Shown piece by piece: positions 15,889 to 52,489 of a stretch of DNA of 64,000 nucleotides (its first letter is position 1; every line of letters begins with the position of its first letter). The position numbers were made by a program, and so were the translations under genes. The notes under the pieces are model-generated. The model had not been told where the DNA came from. It did not search any database and saw only the letters and a list, made by a program, of their open reading frames with translations. Origin of the DNA: Dysidea avara. Taxonomy: Eukaryota > Porifera > Demospongiae > Dictyoceratida > Dysideidae. Where the stretch lies: contig NC_089280.1 of the NCBI RefSeq assembly GCF_963678975.1, positions 1,997,001-2,061,000 on the forward strand, in the 5' to 3' direction.

Positions 15889-16439
15889 TAAAGCGCCTCT
15901 AACGCAATGTTGTTACGTAATTTTACGTGAGGCATCAAACGATGTGAAAGTAACGAAACCCGTCTCATGATAGTCTCGTCCACCAGACCCGAGACCAGAC
16001 AAGCGCGATTATCTATTAAACGCTTGAGTGGGAAAGGTCTCGGGGGGACAAGTCCCATGAGATGATTCATGTACGATGCCGCGGGCACGGAAGAGCTGAA
16101 TCGTATTCATAGTGAATCTTGTTATACGCAGAAATCCTACGACCTTTGAACTTCCGGTACCGAAATCACGTGATCACATTTCGGTTCCTCGGTCATCCGG
16201 CACACGAGTTCCTAAAAGTGAGATTCTTCTTCTTTGGTGCTTTGGTGTTTTATCTGTTATTCTCACCTCAAGTAGTTACTTCGAACTGATGCTACGCGGC
16301 TTCTACGGTAAACCATAAAATGCTTTTAGTTCAGTTTTGCATCGACTGATTGTGGATCTTTGAGTGCTACTAAAAGAGCTGCAGGTAAACAAATGATGCT
16401 AGACTGACTACCTACTGAATGCAACTGATTATCTCTGTA

Positions 16440-17881
16440 TTCGTGAAGAGTACAAGGTTTGGATATATAGAAACTACATCATATCATTGTTACATTTTCA
16501 CCTATGTGTTGATGCAGTGTCAAATAGGACAATTTCACAGATGGAATCAACTGCCACTCGTTATCTGAAGAAGTGGTTGGACAGAACATGTCCGGCTGAT
16601 GTCTGGTTTTCATCCTGGGCAGTTGTTATTTCTTTTGTGGGCTGCTTCAGATACCTTACCAACTGCAGTTAACTTTAGGCGTTGGTGTGTTCAATCTGAT
16701 GTTAAGTGTACATTGTGTGACTCGACTCATCCTACCACAGCTCACATCCAAGGAGGCTGTCCTGTTGCCTTAACGCAACAGAGATATACATACCGTCATG
16801 ATCAAGTTCTTCACTTTCTGGCCTCTAAACTCAAAAGAAATATTTAGTGACAATCCATCTATCCATGTTTTTGCTGACCTTCAGGGTTTACGAGCTAGTG
16901 AAACACCTCAAGCCACTATTCTATCTACCTTACTAATCACACCTTACAGGCCAGATATTGTTGTATATAACTCAGGCAAACCCTCTGTTGCTTTACTTGA
17001 ACCATAGATAATAGACACCCCATACTGGATTGGAAACTTCTAAGCGCCACCTAATCTATCCGCGCTTCGCGCCCCTTATACTATACACAGTACCGGGAGT
17101 ATATTTTATAAGAACATGTTTTGCTTACTGGTGAGTAGTAAACCTACCGCTATGGAATATAAGGTTTGGCCTATTCATAGTGGGTGTACTGATGTGTATT
17201 AGGTAGAAGTTTGACAAGCGCGAAAGGTGATACTTGACTAAACTGGAGCGAATATACCATGAAACACATACCAGTACACGTAGCATTAGTTAGTAATAAG
17301 CATCAGCCTTAAACTAAACTTGTTCACCCCGCCATTTTTACAAACATGTTCATATACTTTTTATACGGAAAGCGCCTATACCAGTAGTAGGCCAATCGCC
17401 ACCCAAGAAACAATCTACTAAACTTACTAGTTAAAGCAACCAAGCTGTATCCAGACAGTAAAACAGAATCTTCGAATGAAAAAGAGTGCTTGAAAACTTC
17501 AGGCGCGAAACGCGGATAGAACAGTAGTTTTGTATGGGCACTATACGTGTGCTTCCAATCCAGGTAGGGGTGTCTATTATCTATGCTTGAACTAACCTGC
17601 CCTCTAGACTCAGAACACAACATTCAATCTGCTAGGTCTAGAAAACAAAATAAGATTGAATATCATCGACTGCTTGCAGAATTTGATCACTTAAAAATCC
17701 CAAACTATTATGAAACTATTGAAATTAGTGTGCTAGGTCACTACCTACCTTCTTCCATTCAGAACATCAAGAACTTTATTGACTTTGTACAACTTTGTGT
17801 AACCACCAAATCTTCCATCCAAAAGATCCTCGACAATGCTGCTCGTCAATGTATGACATGTTCGCAAAAGATTTTTTTGTA
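16440..17881 (+). pseudogene. LINE 3' part with restriction-like endonuclease (R2/CRE-type)
   Basis: The end of a non-LTR retrotransposon ORF is preserved. A segment near 16450-16590 (YKVWIYRNYI, then TISQMESTATRYLKKWLD) resembles the region after the reverse transcriptase. From about 16660 follow a zinc knuckle CTLCDSTHPTTAHIQGGC, then RYTYRHDQVLHFLASKL, RPDIVVYNSGKP and LLELTCP with a downstream K-x-x-EY. This is the CCHC plus PD-(D/E)XK arrangement of R2-like LINEs, which cut their target with this nuclease. A frame change occurs near 16620-16660, and a 583-bp MITE splits the nuclease motif at 17003. The copy is 5'-truncated and dead. A T/G-rich 3' region runs to about 18050. Confidence 0.8.
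17003..17585. mobile_element. MITE inserted in the LINE endonuclease, 7-bp duplication
   Basis: The ends are perfect 17-bp inverted repeats beginning catagataatagacacc, extended imperfectly for about 60 bp (ggattggaa and ttccaatcc). The target cttgaac is duplicated at 16996-17002 and 17586-17592. Removing the insert restores the local reading ALLELTCP of the LINE nuclease, which confirms the borders. The 7-bp duplication does not decide the superfamily. Confidence 0.85.
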
Positions 17882-18050
17882 GTGATTGGTCAACCGAGCA
17901 CTTAACTTAATTTTTGTCTTGTAATTATTGTTGTTGCTGTTGTTGTTAGTCTTTTTTTTTTGTTTGTTTGTTTTCTTTTTACATGTACACAACTTGCCGT
18001 GCCCACAAGATCTCATTTTGCTTGATCTGACTGTGGTCGCACAAGACCGA

Positions 18051-19512
18051 GGACTAATAATGTATTGTATGTATCATCTTATTATTAATGATGGTTCTCT
18101 CTCTGGACTAAAAGTGAGTAAATCATAAGGTGTTCAGTGCTATCAGTTAATCACAAAATAGTTATGCATTCTATTATAGCTGACAAGATAATCTGCACAT
18201 CATGCCAATAATCAGTTCAGTCATCACAGGATAGGGCAGAGTTTGCCTCTCTGTCCACAGCTTGTATGTGAAGAGTGAAGACTTTTTTTAGTATTGTAGC
18301 TGTTGTAAACTTGTGTGTGTGTGTATTTGTAATGTGATTTTTGTTTTGTATTGTGTGTTCATCAGTTCAGTTGATGGGTGCTTGTAGATCTAGAAGTTGC
18401 TTGCACAGAGTGCAATTCCCCTGTTCCCACACATGCAACTGGCATAATGTTGCGCTATAAAGCTTATTAATAGATAACAAAGCCAAAAATAATTAAAATT
18501 CACACTGCCACATAATGTACTTTACCATGAAATTTATATACGGTTAGTCCAAAATTGCAATTTTAAGGTTAAAATTCTGCTACATTATTATACTGAATTG
18601 TATTGACCACATTTGGAATGGATAAAATTACAAGAAAGAAGGCACAGCCTATATAAGTCCTTTCCACTTGTACGCTTACACAAAATGTTGTTACTGTAAC
18701 AGCTACTTATGTACATATCAATGAAGAATAAATGCTCCAGCAGCCATGTGATCCACATTGAGTTCTATAGCAGAAACAGATCTACAGCCATGCTGGTAGG
18801 CTGCATGTGTTTCAGAAATTGCAACAACAGAGGAACTGGCCGACATCACAGAGCTGGAACGATGCAATTACTTACCTAGCTAATGCTTTAATTATTTTTC
18901 ATATCCTGCTTATTGTGTTGTAAAACTATTTTGCTGAGTATTATAGCAAGATGACACAGAATCCACCAGTTTGAGATTTGGTGTACAGTAAGTGTGACGT
19001 GTTTATGAATTTGCTATAATAGACCATCTGAGATGTGCAATCTTGGATGTGGTTTTGTAAAAAGTTGAAAGCCTCGGGTAATGTATTGCAAATGGTAATG
19101 ATTGTCAGCCACGTATGTTGTCGTCAGGTATGTTTAGTACAAATTCATGGTCTTGGCTGGCAGAGGAAATTATTAAAACTTTTACCTTAATGCTATCCTG
19201 AGGTTTGCTTGTTATGACTTTCCACTGTCTGTATGAAGGTAAGTTTACAAGAGGGCTGGAGAGTGGCTTGTCCCAGCAAAGCCAGGTCAACTCTCAAACT
19301 ACCATAAGCTTACCTTCAAACACCACTAGTGTGTCAAGTAAAATGAATACACTGCCAGCTGTTTAACCATTCTCGCTTGAAAACTGGCGCCGGATTCAAG
19401 CAAGGATTTTTTTTAAAGAAAAGATTCACAATGACATAGGTATAACAAAGATATTTAAACTGCATGCAATATAATCAATATTCCTAGTGGTTGTCATAAT
19501 AATAATAAGAGA
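18051..19512. other. Non-coding interior of the MULE, 3' of the transposase gene
   Basis: No open frame with recognisable protein similarity and no inverted repeat was seen. The stretch holds the expected 3' untranslated region and polyadenylation site of the minus-strand gene, which I could not pinpoint. Confidence 0.4.
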
Positions 19513-20079
19513 CTAGTCAGATATCTCGATCAGTTCACTGGATACTCCTGATAATAAAGGCTGGTAAATGCACACCCTTCCTGTATCCACAGATACTATT
19601 GCATCATAATGAGAATTTGTGTAGTATAACAACTCAAAATGTGTTGGCCTCAACAAAGTACATTCTTCCATCTCAGGAATGTGAGGATACTTGAGTGTGG
19701 GGTTGTGCAGTGGGTATATAGTATTCCACTTGTGCTCATTTCCTGACTGCTCTATGAAAAATATCGGTACTGCAAAAACTGTTGCTGCAGCTACTACTTC
19801 TACCTGAGTGGCCCATGCACCTGACGGCCAGTTTTGCTCACAATGTTTTTCAATTGTATCCACATCTTTCCTTGGAATAAAATAAGGTCTGAAAATACTT
19901 TGGTTTTTTTTAACCATACTGGTTACCACGTGTCGAACTTCAAAGTCTTCATCTTGTGTACCGAATAGTTGAAAGGAAAGTGATGCATAGAAACAGTTTC
20001 CGTCCCATTTAATCTTTATTACTTTACGACTTTGTGTGGTTAAATATGCATCACATGATAACATCAACTCCTCGGCTAC
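19513..20079 (-). CDS. OTU cysteine-protease exon of the transposase gene
   Basis: The 188-codon last exon begins VAEELMLSCDAYLTT after an AG acceptor. It contains KWDGNCFYASLSFQLFG, the OTU catalytic Asp-Gly-Asn-Cys block, and near its end THFELLYYTNSHYDAIV with the catalytic His. Between them GAWATQVEVVAAATVF matches the usual G-x-W-x-x-x-x-E-hydrophobic stretch of OTU folds. Length and spacing fit a complete domain. Known OTU enzymes remove ubiquitin; a role in protecting or processing the transposase is only inferred. Confidence 0.88.
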   Translation of the reverse strand, partial: VAEELMLSCDAYLTTQSRKVIKIKWDGNCFYASLSFQLFGTQDEDFEVRHVVTSMVKKNQSIFRPYFIPRKDVDTIEKHCEQNWPSGAWATQVEVVAAATVFAVPIFFIEQSGNEHKWNTIYPLHNPTLKYPHIPEMEECTLLRPTHFELLYYTNSHYDAIVSVDTGRVCIYQPLLSGVSSELIEISD

Positions 20080-23000
20080 CTAAAATAAACATTCAGGCAG
20101 CATATCAAATACAATTTTAAATATTACTTTAGCAAAAGATTATAATAAAATTTGTTGTAAATGTGACTTACACCATGTTGTGTCTTAGGCTGTTTGTTTT
20201 TTCCATTGTTACTACCTGCATATGTTAAGTATGTCTGTATATTGTTTCGATTTGTTTGTTCATATACCTGATATAAAATTGTCAGTTAATTTCCTCGAAA
20301 TTGTGTCGTCAACAGGCTGAATATTTTCCTAAACACATTGTGGTGCATTGGTATGTGTTAATATTACAGTAGTTCAATCATTATCAAACCTTTCTAGCAG
20401 TGTTCAGTGTATCAGTTTCCTGTGTTAATCTGTGTGTGAAAAACGCAATATCTCCATATCATTAACAATAAATTTGTATCGACCTTTCACATTTCCGTTC
20501 ACTGCATGGCCTCTTCTTCTTTCCTGGCCCTCCATATTTTGGCATGTCTTGACAGTTGACGCACTTCTCACAATTTACTCTAGTACAGCCTTTGCAAGTG
20601 TCACATCTCTTTCGCTTTTTTCCTATTTGTATGGAAACAATGCAGACGTGTAATTGTAAAATATACTGTTTACCAATAACTTGTGGCTGTTGGTCTTTGA
20701 CTGTACAAATGTTTGTTTCTCTGTCAACGTAAAGCTGATTGCTATAAATACATGTACGTTGTGTTTATCACCTTTTATGTACATATGCTTTATTTAGCTA
20801 CCTGTTTGATGCTGTCTGCTGAGATCCAGATATCACTGACATTATCTTCAACTTGTCATCGTTACTAGGCTTCCTAGAAGAGAGAAGATGGTAATTATAC
20901 TACGTACGTACAGTAGCTTTGCCTATAACTGTGCATGCATGTGTACAGTACACAACAAACTTCATTGGAGGGTTAGAGGGTTTTCTTCCAGGATCTTTTG
21001 ATGTTTTCCATAATCGTAATTGTATTTCATTCTTTTGTGCCGGTGCAAATTTCTCCTTAACTTCAAAATTACACAATTCATTTTCTGGTAAAGATTGGGT
21101 AACAGCCTTCAAAGCTGCAGATGCTTGCGTCAGTAAACACAACACACGTTCTAGGACATTTGAATCACAGGTGTGGTCACATGATTCACTTATGGCTTCT
21201 AGCATTTTCCTAACTGCTTCCTTGCGTCCATTGATGTCTAGTAATTATAGTAATTTGTAAATCACATTATATTAAGTACCTGAAGATTTTCACTTGTCTT
21301 GTGATGGGGTACACATGTATACAGTAGACGTCTCTGTTGTCTCAGTAGGTTCATCCTCTATAATGGACTGATGATTGATTGGTTTTAAGTCTTCCACCTG
21401 TGTGTTCACTACCAATGCTCTAACCTACATACATATTAAGTATTAAAGTTTCCCTCATACTGCATGTACATATGCAGAGTATGAAAGATGACCTTATGGG
21501 TATGCTTGCATATGTGTCCACATTTGTAGTCAATGCACGAACACTCCATGATACACCGACACAAATGGGAACACTCGGGGGCTATGCAGTGAGGGACACA
21601 CTTGCTTCCTAGTGCACATTGCTCAGCATAAACATGAATAGTGTACTCCTTCTCTCTGCTTGTAGACACAACTTTAAAGATATCCTCACTGACCATCTAT
21701 TGTAGAATGACAGATTATCACTAAGTATGAGTATATAATCTATACCTGTATTGACTCATCAGGAATTTCCATCCCACGGGTGTGCCTGTCAGTACCCTCT
21801 TGTTTTAGTGATACCTCACTGCTGTCTCTCATGACCTCCTTACGCATGCGATCAAAAAACAAATCTTCTTCAATTTGTAGGAGTGTTCCAACCAGATCAT
21901 CAATTCTTTTGTTAACTTGATGTGCCAGATATCTTGGATTCATCTTTAGCTTGTTATGAAAACTACAGATACATGCAGTAGTATATATGATGTGTAAATT
22001 GCATCTTAACCTCTTACTATTATACACCTACCTTTCTACAAGCATATTAGTGTCTGTGCTCTGGTGATCAAAGTGACGGTAACACATGGCCCACTTTTCT
22101 ATTAAATTGTAAATGAACATTTTCAGTAAATATGTGCACAAGTGTTATTACAAGTAATTGCTACAACTGGTCCCCCAAAAGTTGGTCCTCCTGACCACCT
22201 ATATCAGCCACTGATGGTTCCGTAGACCACTTACAGTGCCACAAATGGTCCCTACGGACCATTTACAGCACTATGGATAGTTTCCATTTAACATAACAAT
22301 AACCCATGTAACAAACATGAGTTGTATAATCAGCAGAGTTTGTCACTTTTCACTTATGATTGTGTACAGTAACTATACCATGTATACATACCACCAATAA
22401 CAGAAGCCAGTCCTTATTATAAGTTTTGCTTCACTCAACATGTATCTTTTCTAAAAGGTAAAAGCTATGGTAAATCTTTTAAGTATCACAATCATGCTGG
22501 TTGAGAACATATCATATCACCCGTATCATTGTGGTTTGAGTCATTAGCTAGCTACCATATTATAGCTAGATAGTTAGGCAGGAGGAAAGTTGTAGCAGTA
22601 GGATTCTGGTGAGAAAATTTTTGGTGAAATTGTTACAGATTTGTATTGGACAAATGATTTGGCAGATTTTAGTTTGTTGAAATACCACACAGTTGCCAAA
22701 CTTTCTACAGTATTGTGTGAGTGGGTGGGGATCACTTGTAACAAGGAACCAATTGAGACAACATTATATGCTCTGGCCAAACCATTAGAAGTACTGTTGT
22801 TGGCCTGGCCAGACAACTTGGAATGTGGACCACTTACATCATGACAGTACCTGCTCTGGATCTATACTCATTGTTGTAATACTCTATAAACTTCGGCTGT
22901 CTGGTAGACCAATAAGTTGTGAAAGTTTCCTCCTTATCTTTAAATGTGTCGCTGTCCTCTTCGTTCATTAGTATCCATAAACATGCATATAGGTTTGCCT

Positions 23001-26000
23001 TCTGTTCTGAATCCTTCACTAGGGCTTTCAATTTTCTCTGCCATGCTCTAAGTGTTTTGTATAAATACATGTTGTGATAAAAACAAATTGAGGTAGCACA
23101 TTAACCTGTACCTATCAATATGCCATTTACAAAGCAAATGTCTCACTCCTGGATATACAGTACTACATCCATTGACTCCAGCCAAATCTACAAACATCAT
23201 TGAAAATATGAAATAACACATCTTGTCATTGTGACACAATAGCTAGATACATACCGTCATCTGTCATCAAATTAGTAATCTTTGCTTTAGGACATCGTTC
23301 ATGAACTACTTTGAAAAACATAGTTAGTGTAGCTTCATCTTCTCTATTAGAGATCAACCAAGCCACAGGACATCCTGGGTGTATATAAGCATAAGTATGC
23401 AGGGCAGGTTCTAACGATATTAAGAATTGTGATTTGGATTATACAAATGATTAGCTGTTCATAGAAATACAAGTGTGCACACTATCTTGTAATGTGATTA
23501 CTGGCAGCCTGGCATGACATGTAATTTTTATACCAAATACATTTGTAATACAATGCCAACCATTAAACCTGCATGTATAGCAGTACGTAGTCAGTACAGG
23601 GTACAATATGGGACTCACAGCCAAGAAATCATAATAATCAGGGAGGGGGGTTATTTCAAACTCCTTATGTATTGCTACTGCTATGTTACTGATTGTTATA
23701 GATGGAAAGAAATTACATACATGAAAAGTTATCTTTAAAGATGGGCAAATAAATGTTAACAAATGTAATGTGAAAGTAGCATCCCTTAATTCTGTATATG
23801 CATGGGGATGTGCATTTCAAGGTCTTATACTCATTAGGCCATGCATACCTATCTGATCTCATGTTGTGCAGGCCCGACCAACTGCATTTTTCTTCAAGTG
23901 AAATAATTTTGAAAATCATGTGTGTGGATGGCATGTTCCAATTAAAAGACCATACAATTGTGTTACAGCCAAAAGGGCCCATTGAAGATTGTCCAACAGT
24001 CTAAAATTGTACAGATATAATGGGAAAGCTCAAAGTGGGGAGCCTAGCTGGCAAACAGGCAGTGTGATAATATGAAACCTGAATTTTTAACTGTGTATGT
24101 AAAATATAGCTACTGCATTTTGTATGAAAATTGCTATCATTTTCAAACTGATCTACCTACCCAAATTTAAAATAATTTTGCTCGTGCAACATAAGATCAA
24201 ATAGGTATGGTCTAATGATTATAACAACAGATTAATAATTAATACAGTGCAGTTTAATGTTGTCTTACCATTACGAAACTCATCTGGGACTACCAGTGTT
24301 ACTAACTTATGTTTATACTGGTTTGTCCGGTGCGTTGAATCCAGGCACACAATTTTGGCTGAAAATTCTTCAAATATATTCATCTGAAATTCTGTCATGA
24401 TAGCCAAAAAGAAACTATCATCAGGTAGTAGGTACTGGGCATTGGTAATCCCTTGCTGCTTATATGCTATAATTGGTGATGGTGATTCTTGATTTAGTTC
24501 ATTGACAAGACGATCTACAGAAATGGCATCATCTGTGTGTCGATGTTTTATAAATTCATTTAGTTTTCTTCGTATGTTTCTGCAATCTTGGCGAGAAACG
24601 AAGTGCTTTCTGCTTGCAGTTTCTCTGAAATATTGTCTCTTTACACGACTACCCACACTACCACGGATGTCTGTGTGGTTGAAAATAACTTATGTAAAAT
24701 AGCATTCAGAGACGAATATTACATCTCACAGTAGACCCATGCCATGTGCAGGTTTGACCAGCCTTAATGTTCTTTTGAACAAGGTAAAGTTGTACACATT
24801 AAATTTCAACTATTTAGATTATTCACTGACCACTGCTGATGAAGACTAACAACTATCACTCAAAATTGGCCTGAAACACCCTCCAGAATGTAGCATCTCC
24901 TAGCAACGAGGGCCACATATACTACATCCCTTAGTCTGCATCCTTTTTTTTTGTCTGTATGCATTCACACAGTGCAGAATATGTATGTCTGACCAAACTT
25001 GATTGTGGTCAAACATGCAGCCCATATAATTTACGTGGATGTCTGGTCACGAACTTTTATGTTAATAGTTAACAAGTGCAATGCATACAACATAAGGGTA
25101 ACTGTGGTTAGTGTAGTGTTAATAATGCAGAAGTGTGTGTGTGTATGTGTGTGTGTGCTATATAGGTAGTATGTACATATTAGTACGTATGGTATACATA
25201 CATGTTGAGCTGAGCCATTGAATACATCATACTGATGAAAAATTACACTAGTTCTTCAATTTGTAATATAATCTATTCATTCAAAATCTGACATGTTATT
25301 TATGACCAAAGTTGTCACTGTACATTTCCATAAAAGAGCATAGTCTATTTCCAGGAAGTCAAATCGCACATTATCTGTTTTGCTCTGTATTGTCATCAAT
25401 AATGGTTGAATAATCTGCATTCTTTTTGCTGTTTTCTCAGGGCTCAGCTCAACGCATGTGTACATGATTGTTGTGTAATTGTTGCATGCTGCAATTCCAA
25501 ATGAATACAAACAATTATGTGCACTTCATACCATCCATTATTGTTTCCATTTCCACGCCATTTGCTAACATGGTCTTCACCCTTTCTATGACGGCCTTGG
25601 GCAATGGCAGATGTTTACATTCTTTCAAATTCAGTTGGTGATTAGTGTGTGTTGCCGTGTAACAAACAGTGACTTTCCCTGATACCAAATTCTCAGTTGC
25701 CGTGATTGATGCCAAACAAAACTTCTCTGGTGTGAGTTTGCGAGATTCTTTGGAAGACCTCTGTTTATCAGTCTTGCATTGCTTAGTACAGCCTCTGTAC
25801 CCACCATCCCGACAGCACGTATAAACTACTATACGCTTTTCCTCTGTAATTGAACAGATGTGTGTGTATTGGTCACTGATAAACTATTGCAGTGTCTCTT
25901 ACCATTAGTACGTTGCTTCTCTCCTGTAGGTTGTACAAAGTAGTAATGCAAGCTTTCTTCTTCTTGATCTTTCCATGATTCAAACTCAGTCCAGCTGTTG

Positions 26001-26585
26001 AATTCTTTCGTTTCTTGTGCTATTAAAGAGTACACCTGATATAATGTTGTATCATCAGTACCTCACCTATATGAATGCTGTGTTCAGTTTGTAAGTGTTT
26101 TATCAGTTCAGTACGATGGAAGTAACACTGTTGGCAATCATGGATGTGACACTTAAACCGTCCACTTTTTGTAGCTGGGATCTGGTGGTCTCGTTTCAAG
26201 TGTTGAAGTAAATTGTCCTTTCTGTTGTAGGACTTGCAGCACTCATTCTCAGGGCATTTGAACACCTGCAGCTGGTTATATACACACACAATTACATACT
26301 GCCTTCTTGGAATGGCCCCATATACAAAAACAACTGTGCATATCATAATACCAACTAGCAAACGCTTTATGTTATGGGTAACAATTAGTCTATAAAATAT
26401 ATAGGTACCTATAAGATTAAACTTGTCATTTCAGTACTGATTTGTTGGCTTTGTAATGAGCTACTGATTCGATTAGAAGTGCAATCAGTGAGTTACTTTA
26501 CCTTTTCATGATCAACATGAGAGTAACCGTTTCTTTTACAATCCGTGTCAGGGTCACTGTCAAACACGATTTCCCTGGAAGCCAT
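19513..26585 (-). CDS. MULE transposase with C2H2, SWIM, CXXC and OTU domains
   Basis: Exons in coding order, high to low coordinates: 26585-26502 (ATG, MASREIVFDSD), 26265-26062 (two C2H2 fingers), 26035-25903, 25843-25532 (Cys-rich, then CYTATHTNHQL, WRKY-GCM1/FLYWCH-like), 24670-24269 (CLDSTHRTN, first catalytic Asp), 23374-23255 (MTDDD, second Asp), 23187-23112 (CKWH, the MULE CxxH), 23047-22851, 22098-22032, 21962-21746 (the junction of these two gives VESFHNK, catalytic Glu), 21696 to about 21493 (SWIM, CSCIDYKCGH), about 21422-21292, about 21251-20973, about 20873-20781, 20622-20484 (CXXC), about 20433-20393, about 20262-20171, and 20079-19513 (OTU, stop). About 1,100 residues. Phases agree from the ATG to the SWIM exon; splicing from there to the CXXC exon is tentative. 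It would cut and paste the element in the nucleus; the OTU domain is a predicted deubiquitinase. Confidence 0.8.
20484..20622 (-). CDS. CXXC zinc-finger exon of the transposase gene
   Basis: The frame reads KRCDTCKGCTRVNCEKC, then VNCQDMPKYGGPGKKKR and PCSERKC. This has the CxxCxxC, second Cys cluster, DMxKxGGPG and final CxxxxC of the CXXC domain found in CFP1, MLL/KMT2, TET and DNMT1 proteins, which in those hosts binds unmethylated CpG. The loop before the last cysteines contains the basic KKKR. The exon joins the downstream exons in phase (AG plus A gives Arg); the upstream junction is unresolved by one frame, possibly bridged by a micro-exon near 20670-20690. The fold assignment is strong; DNA binding is inferred. 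Confidence 0.85.
22130..22850 (-). other. Intron of the transposase gene
   Basis: Short frames on both strands (for example 22641-22844) have no recognisable motif. A small tandem pattern of ggtcc and accac words occurs at 22170-22260. Confidence 0.4.
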
Positions 26586-26814
26586 TTTTCCGCCAAAACT
26601 CAGTGGATGACGGAAGAAATTACGTGATTTTTGTAGAAACAGGAAGTTCAAAGGTCGTAGGATTTCTGCGTATAACGAGATTCATTTATAGTGAACCGGA
26701 AATTTTTTTGCAAGGTGTCGGATGTGCTATATGGCGAGCGTAATACTGTTGAATAACTGTTCCCAGTTGCTGTATTTGCTGATGTTGATAAACCAATCAC
26801 TGAAGGACAGGATC
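26586..26814. promoter_or_regulatory. Shared head-to-head promoter interval between MULE transposase and receptor gene B
   Basis: Only 229 bp separate the two divergent start codons. The interval contains the right MULE end (26642-26683), its 9-bp target duplicate (26684-26692) and about 122 bp of host sequence before the gene B start. No convincing TATA box was identified. That the interval drives both genes is inferred from spacing alone. Confidence 0.45.

Positions 26815-52489
<25,675 letters not shown>

What the first reader, a model, noticed from the sequence alone, without database searches (positions are those of the whole stretch)
19513..26585. A MULE transposase fused to CXXC, SWIM and OTU domains
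Seen: one minus-strand spliced gene holds two C2H2 fingers, a WRKY-GCM1-like Cys/His region, a MULE core (CLDSTH, MTDDD, CKWH, VESFHNK), a SWIM finger, a CXXC finger (RCDTCKGC, QDMPKYGGPG) and an OTU domain (DGNCFYASL, SHYDAIV). Known: MULE transposases often carry SWIM fingers, and CXXC domains bind unmethylated CpG. A MULE carrying both a CpG reader and a ubiquitin protease is, to my knowledge, not a standard arrangement. Inference: the element may steer insertion to unmethylated promoters and guard its transposase from degradation.
Basis: partly seen in the sequence, partly recalled or inferred. Interest (0 to 1): 0.88.

Follow-up and report, generated by a model that had tools for sequence, protein, structure and literature searches.

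The report
Mutator transposon with CXXC and OTU
An intact-looking, recently copied animal jumping gene carries in its predicted transposase a CpG-binding-type zinc finger and a deubiquitinase-type domain, and many related jumping genes in the same genome carry the same pair, which suggests (not yet shown) that they read or manipulate the host's DNA methylation.

Summary
Window 19513-26585 (minus) reads as a 20-exon gene of 1150 aa with Pfam MULE, ZSWIM1-3 RNase H-like, zf-CXXC and OTU over cut-off. It lies in a 10.57 kb element, 16114-26683, whose inverted ends recur in other copies, with 9-bp target duplications at 3 of 6 two-ended copies. The pair is not private: of 142 CXXC loci taken from a capped genome list, 92 have an OTU within 3 kb downstream (0 reversed) and 87 a MULE core upstream (1 reversed), in several distant MULE lineages. 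Zinc cysteines and OTU catalytic residues are largely kept. Eleven insertion sites average 8.7 CpG/200 bp against 2.3 and 3.1 in background tiles. That fits targeting of unmethylated CpG, but no CXXC-less MULE control could be fetched, methylation was not measured, and the window copy has Arg where known CpG readers have Gln. The role of the OTU is untested. New variant of a known kind.

The parts
16114..26683 (-). whole MULE element, 10,570 bp
   Evidence: ends shared by copies on C9, C12 (two) and C3 (two)
16105..16113 (.). left target-site duplication ATTCATAGT
   Evidence: 8 of 9 match to the right one; same register exact in copy C3a
26684..26692 (.). right target-site duplication ATTTATAGT
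16113..16158 (+). left terminal inverted repeat (46 nt, 96% complementary)
   Evidence: similarity of the two ends extends to about 61 bp
26639..26684 (-). right terminal inverted repeat
19513..26585 (-). 20-exon gene, 1150 aa predicted transposase
26062..26265 (-). exon 2: two C2H2-like fingers
   Evidence: spacing read directly; relative L061 Pfam C2H2 2.6e-5, just under cut-off
25532..25843 (-). exon 4: WRKY-GCM1/FAR1-like Cys/His region
   Evidence: relative L061 FAR1 7.3e-4, below cut-off
21746..24670 (-). exons 5-10: MULE DDE core
   Evidence: Pfam MULE 1.6e-14; CLDSTH/MTDD/VESFH
21493..21696 (-). exon 11: SWIM-like CxC-x9-CxH with extra cysteines
   Evidence: motif only; no Pfam match in this protein
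20484..20741 (-). exons 15-16: CXXC zinc finger
   Evidence: Pfam 2.7e-10; KMT2B 6.3e-10 and DNMT1 4.9e-8 in PDB
19513..20079 (-). exon 20: OTU cysteine-protease domain
   Evidence: Pfam 3.4e-10; profile of six such OTUs best to OTUD5/OTUD1

Best explanation
A complete, recently active Mutator-like DNA transposon whose single gene encodes DNA-binding fingers, a DDE transposase core, a SWIM-like finger, a CXXC finger and an OTU deubiquitinase-like domain (structure shown by sequence; single transcript inferred). It is one of a broad set of MULEs in this genome that carry CXXC followed by OTU. Most likely mechanism (inferred): the CXXC finger adds affinity for CpG-rich, unmethylated DNA, so the transposition complex assembles on or inserts into open, promoter-like chromatin; the OTU removes ubiquitin at that place, from the transposase itself or from chromatin.
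For: Gene model and domains. Inverted ends, copies with the same ends, 9-bp duplications in one register at 3 of 6 two-ended copies. Copies C9a, C12a and C12b have no stop and no frame-breaking indel in aligned exons, and GT/AG borders throughout (C9a is a segmental duplicate of the window copy). OTU downstream of CXXC at 92 of 142 CXXC loci, 0 upstream, 0 on the opposite strand, about 0.05 expected if placed at random; MULE core upstream at 87 of 142, 1 downstream, 4 opposite. All eight Cys in 48 of 51 CXXC read; D26-G-N-C29, H157 and D159 invariant in six OTUs, the others 23-32% identical to the window's. CpG-rich insertion sites; CpG observed/expected 0.385 and TpG 1.36 in the window; DNMT domains at three places, and one partial match each to DNMT1-RFD and SRA.
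Against: No transcript. The Gln that aligns in KMT2B/DNMT1 is Arg here; over the 51 read it is Gln in 30, Lys in 16, Arg in 5. Two of seven own-family sites (C3a, C3b) are not CpG-rich and C12a only moderately. No CXXC-less MULE control; background is one window plus a few TE-rich loci. 3 of 6 two-ended copies show no duplication in that register; the L054/L055 family showed no inverted ends or duplication.
Confidence: 0.5

Rival explanations
1. Anti-silencing module: CXXC holds the protein on the element's own CpG-rich ends and the OTU strips ubiquitin marks (for example the histone ubiquitin that recruits maintenance methylation), keeping the ends unmethylated and usable.
For: Terminal 300 bp have CpG observed/expected 1.06 and 0.98 against 0.33-0.38 inside six copies; partial DNMT1-RFD and SRA matches exist in the genome.
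Against: The right end is also the gene's promoter, which alone could explain CpG richness; its 10 CpG per 300 bp are reached by 6.7% of background tiles (left end 2.2%); older copies have ends of 0.71-0.79; OTU targets are unknown.
Confidence: 0.2
2. The CXXC is a general or altered-specificity DNA-binding finger; CpG-rich sites reflect the usual MULE preference for open genic DNA or survival of insertions there.
For: Lys or Arg in place of Gln in 21 of 51; MULEs are reported to insert in low-copy or genic sequence (PMC3903597, passages) and Muta1 shows no apparent sequence preference (PMC5225508, passages).
Against: Eight Cys in 48 of 51 and the aromatic-G-G motif in most; 30 of 51 keep Gln.
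Confidence: 0.25
3. The CXXC-OTU exons are a separate transcript, either an accessory gene of the element or a captured host gene.
For: No RNA; 31 of 92 CXXC-OTU loci lacked a MULE or DBD hit in capped lists.
Against: Exon phases join (sites chosen by hand); same order and strand in many MULEs; copy L051, in which no core was seen, still has the DNA-binding part, CXXC and OTU in one direction.
Confidence: 0.05

Closest known systems
Mutator-like elements (MULEs; Muta1 of Aedes as a characterised animal member, PMC5225508 passages)
   Same: DDE MULE core, inverted ends, 9-bp target duplications; C2H2/WRKY-GCM1-like and SWIM parts supported through relatives
   Different: carries a CXXC finger and an OTU domain at the C terminus
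ZSWIM1/ZSWIM3 (MULE-related host genes)
   Same: RNase H-like domain, Pfam PF21056 2.9e-11
   Different: here inside a mobile element with ends; no CXXC or OTU known to me in ZSWIM1/3 (recalled)
Helentrons with OTU cysteine protease (PMC4067079, passages)
   Same: a transposon that carries an OTU protease with conserved residues
   Different: rolling-circle element, additional ORF, no CXXC mentioned in the passages seen
KAONASHI MULEs with ULP1-like protease (recalled)
   Same: MULE with a cysteine protease of a ubiquitin-like system
   Different: ULP1 is another protease family; plant; no CXXC known to me
Centipede retrotransposon with captured methyl-CpG-binding domain (de Mendoza et al. 2019; title seen in a reference list; text not held)
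   Same: a transposable element that captured a DNA-methylation reader
   Different: retrotransposon, methyl-CpG reader; here DNA transposons, a finger of the type that binds unmethylated CpG, plus OTU

Membership tests
Mutator/MULE superfamily | MULE DDE domain | tested here: met
   Pfam MULE 1.6e-14; DDE motifs
Mutator/MULE superfamily | terminal inverted repeats shared by copies | tested here: met
Mutator/MULE superfamily | 8-11 bp target-site duplication | tested here: met
   9 bp exact in C3a, 8 of 9 in the window copy and C12b, one register; not seen in C9a, C12a, C3b
Mutator/MULE superfamily | SWIM finger (common, not universal) | tested here: inconclusive
   CxC-x9-CxH in exon 11 but no Pfam match; SWIM over cut-off in L054, L056, L058, L060
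Mutator/MULE superfamily | transposition activity | not testable with these tools
   near-identical copies imply recent activity only
zf-CXXC (CpG-binding) | eight zinc cysteines and K-F/Y-G-G | tested here: met
   window copy:
zf-CXXC (CpG-binding) | Gln that contacts CpG | tested here: not met
   Arg in the window copy; Gln in 30 of 51 read in this genome; that this Gln reads CpG is recalled
zf-CXXC (CpG-binding) | binds unmethylated CpG | not testable with these tools
   needs a binding assay
OTU deubiquitinases | catalytic Cys and His with Asp | tested here: met
   invariant D26 G27 N28 C29 H157 D159 in six OTUs
OTU deubiquitinases | ubiquitin cleavage | not testable with these tools
Phantom (animal Mutator clade, recalled) | FLYWCH-type N-terminus and clade membership | not tested
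   no reference sequences held; paper not held
KAONASHI (MULE with ULP1, recalled) | ULP1-type protease | tested here: not met
   the protease matches are OTU and the related Peptidase_C65; no ULP1 match

The most novel reading that the evidence does not exclude
CXXC-OTU is a reusable counter-silencing cassette of animal MULEs: it docks on unmethylated CpG and removes histone ubiquitin laid by the host (the UHRF1 path to DNMT1, or Polycomb H2A ubiquitin), so that element ends and target promoters stay unmethylated and open. It would be the mirror image of host CXXC proteins that bring ubiquitin ligases to CpG islands.
Probability: 0.17. Interest if true: 0.9.

Novelty: new variant of a known kind. 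Interest (0 to 1): 0.73.

Why it matters
Transposons are known to pick up single parts of the methylation or ubiquitin systems, but a CpG-type finger and a deubiquitinase-type domain joined to a transposase core, with key residues largely kept in many lineages of one genome, would make the transposon side of the methylation arms race directly testable in an animal. It gives clear bench tests (methylation-sensitive binding, ubiquitin cleavage, insertion profiles) and a ready natural comparison between MULEs with and without the module.

Tried and rejected
Rejected: a separate host gene (the exons lie inside the element and recur with it). Rejected: chance neighbours (orientation and order controls). 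Rejected as host background: the CXXC pair at C3:17.37 Mb (L052), which I read by eye as PHD+CXXC, CFP1-like, without a profile call. First taken as a family without transposase, then corrected: L051 shows no core, but apparent sister copies (judged from the hit lists, not aligned) have one upstream.

Led nowhere: relatives of the MULE core in prokaryote genome contigs and viral contigs, by single-protein queries that find close relatives only (27 and 2 pattern matches, 0 confirmed). No inverted ends or target duplication found for the L054/L055 family. dN/dS between near-identical copies has too few changes per domain to be decisive; C3b overall 0.51, MULE 0.27, CXXC 0.47, OTU 0.46, and C3b has single-base indels and one stop. 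A first CXXC pattern missed 9 of 50 loci; they were then read by tblastn. Literature: no paper joining MULE or transposase to a CpG-type CXXC domain, or MULE to OTU, in the listings of searches (held open-licence papers only). I saw the listings, and passages of seven papers: PMC12460157, PMC11292947, PMC11244446, PMC4067079, PMC5225508, PMC3903597, PMC8086355 (in the last, CxxC is only a cysteine spacing). Babu 2006, Marquez and Pritham 2010 and de Mendoza 2019 (centipede element; sponge methylome) were not held, so absence in print is not established.
Full report
What is there. On the minus strand, 26585 to 19513, twenty exons with GT..AG borders join in phase into 1150 residues without a stop. 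I chose the splice sites by hand, so phase agreement is partly by construction; the same borders hold at every exon in copies C9a, C12a and C12b, while C3a has AT at the donor of exon 13, one of the uncertain junctions. Pfam finds MULE (1.6e-14), ZSWIM1-3_RNaseH-like (2.9e-11), zf-CXXC (2.7e-10) and OTU (3.4e-10), all over cut-off. The DDE residues are read in CLDSTH, MTDD and VESFH. The C2H2, WRKY-GCM1/FAR1-like and SWIM parts are not found by Pfam in this protein; the relative at C1:45.01 Mb (L061) gives C2H2 just under and FAR1 clearly under the cut-off, and SWIM is over cut-off only in other lineages.

It is a transposon. A 46-nt inverted repeat brackets the gene. Comparison with six other copies of the same genome and DNA searches with each terminal 300 bp put the ends at 16114 and 26683. 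In one register, 9-bp flanking duplications are exact in copy C3a (GTATCAAAA) and 8 of 9 in the window copy and in C12b; C9a, C12a and C3b show none, and C14 has only the left end. I scanned several lengths and registers, so only the agreement in one register counts. C9a, 85 kb away, shares the window copy's right flank and is a duplicated segment, not an independent insertion. C9a, C12a and C12b have no stop and no frame-breaking indel in the aligned exons (C12a lacks one codon in exon 10; the first two bases of exon 13 were left unaligned in C12a and C12b); C3a has one stop, C3b one stop and single-base indels, C14 lacks many exons.

The module is widespread. In the 551 Mb genome I searched for the CXXC exon, the OTU exon and MULE cores or DNA-binding parts. 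Most of these lists are capped at about 150 scored candidates, so counts are lower bounds. After leaving out second pieces of the same locus, 142 CXXC loci remain. An OTU lies within 3 kb downstream on the same strand for 92 of 142; upstream 0, opposite strand 0; about 0.05 expected under uniform placement. A MULE core lies upstream on the same strand within 15 kb for 87 of 142; downstream 1, opposite strand 4; all three parts at 57. Of the 92 CXXC-OTU loci, 31 had no core or MULE-type DNA-binding exon in these lists, and 20 CXXC loci had no partner at all; one such place is the PHD+CXXC pair of L052, read by eye as a host gene.

Several MULE lineages carry it. L054, L056, L057, L058 and L060 show MULE, SWIM, CXXC and OTU in order in their frames (L060's OTU frame breaks off early), with Pfam ALS2CR8 4.7e-27, MULE 2.3e-11 and SWIM 5.6e-6 for L054. 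L059 has MULE and CXXC without an OTU hit. L061 is of the window type. L051 has the DNA-binding part, CXXC and OTU, but no core was seen, while apparent sister copies have a core upstream.

Are the added domains kept? I read the CXXC of the window and 50 loci. A pattern that itself asks for several of the cysteines and for F/Y matched 41 of 50; with the window these 42 (35 distinct) have all eight cysteines and the aromatic residue. The 9 missed were read by tblastn: 6 have all eight (5 with the first pair one residue closer, as also in L055), L062 and L099 lack cysteines and L085 has a stop in place of one. So 48 of 51 have all eight; not all 51 lie next to a MULE. The residue that is Gln in KMT2B and DNMT1 is Gln in 30, Lys in 16 and Arg in 5 of 51; the window copy has Arg. 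Six OTUs, five of them 23-32% identical to the window's, keep D-G-N-C and H-x-D, and their profile matches OTUD5, OTUD1 and OTUD3 structures best (2.1e-20 to 7.5e-16).

Methylation context. The window has CpG observed/expected 0.385 and TpG 1.36, as expected of a methylated genome (inference from one window). DNMT domains lie at three places; DNMT1-RFD and SRA have one partial match each, over cut-off but with a stop inside the matched stretch, which an intron could explain. Both terminal 300 bp of the element are near 1.0, while the inside of six copies is 0.33-0.38; 2.2% (left) and 6.7% (right) of background tiles hold as many CpG. The 200 bp outside the ends at 11 insertion sites (7 of this family, 4 elements known only by one related end, taken where the match began at the end base) hold 8.7 CpG on average, against 2.3 in 255 window tiles and 3.1 in 246 tiles of other loci (rank test p about 9e-7 and 9e-6; for the 7 alone, mean 8.2, p 1.7e-4 and 9.5e-4; tiles are not independent). 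C3a and C3b are not enriched. The window insertion is 132 bp before the first ATG of a frame I take, from recalled features, for a family-C receptor gene; Pfam found nothing in its first exon alone.

Reading. The element and the recurrent CXXC-OTU module are well supported. That CXXC steers insertion, or protects the ends, and that OTU acts as a deubiquitinase, are inferences. OTU proteases in Helentrons (PMC4067079, passages) show that a transposon can carry such a domain; in the listings of my searches no held paper joined it with CXXC and MULE (searches named under tried and rejected).

Noticed in passing
17003-17585: A miniature inverted-repeat element nested in the window copy; absent from copies C9a, C12a, C12b and C3a; by eye a similar sequence flanks the element of L055.
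   Followed up: partly
16569-17882: Open frames that look (by eye) like the C-terminal zinc-finger and endonuclease part of a non-LTR retrotransposon, split by the miniature element; copies C3b and C14 lack 16320-18103.
   Followed up: partly
27093-27546: Another small element with 35-nt inverted ends (97%), inside the receptor-like gene.
   Followed up: no
L051 (C9:6217001-6226500): Copy with DNA-binding part, CXXC and OTU in open frames, in which no transposase core was seen.
   Followed up: partly
16103 versus C9:1.929 Mb: A duplicated segment 85 kb apart whose left border falls within about 10 bases of the element's left end, as if made by an aberrant transposition.
   Followed up: no
L059, minus-strand frame from base 1818 of the reverse complement: A MULE-CXXC copy with a long degenerate repeat of about 10-12 residues (of the kind TQHGDTTRHGDV) before the CXXC.
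   Followed up: no
L054, L058: The ALS2CR8 (CaRF) DNA-binding domain, known to me from a vertebrate transcription factor, is the N-terminal part of these MULEs (4.7e-27 in L054; weak and under cut-off, 0.0025, in L058).
   Followed up: partly
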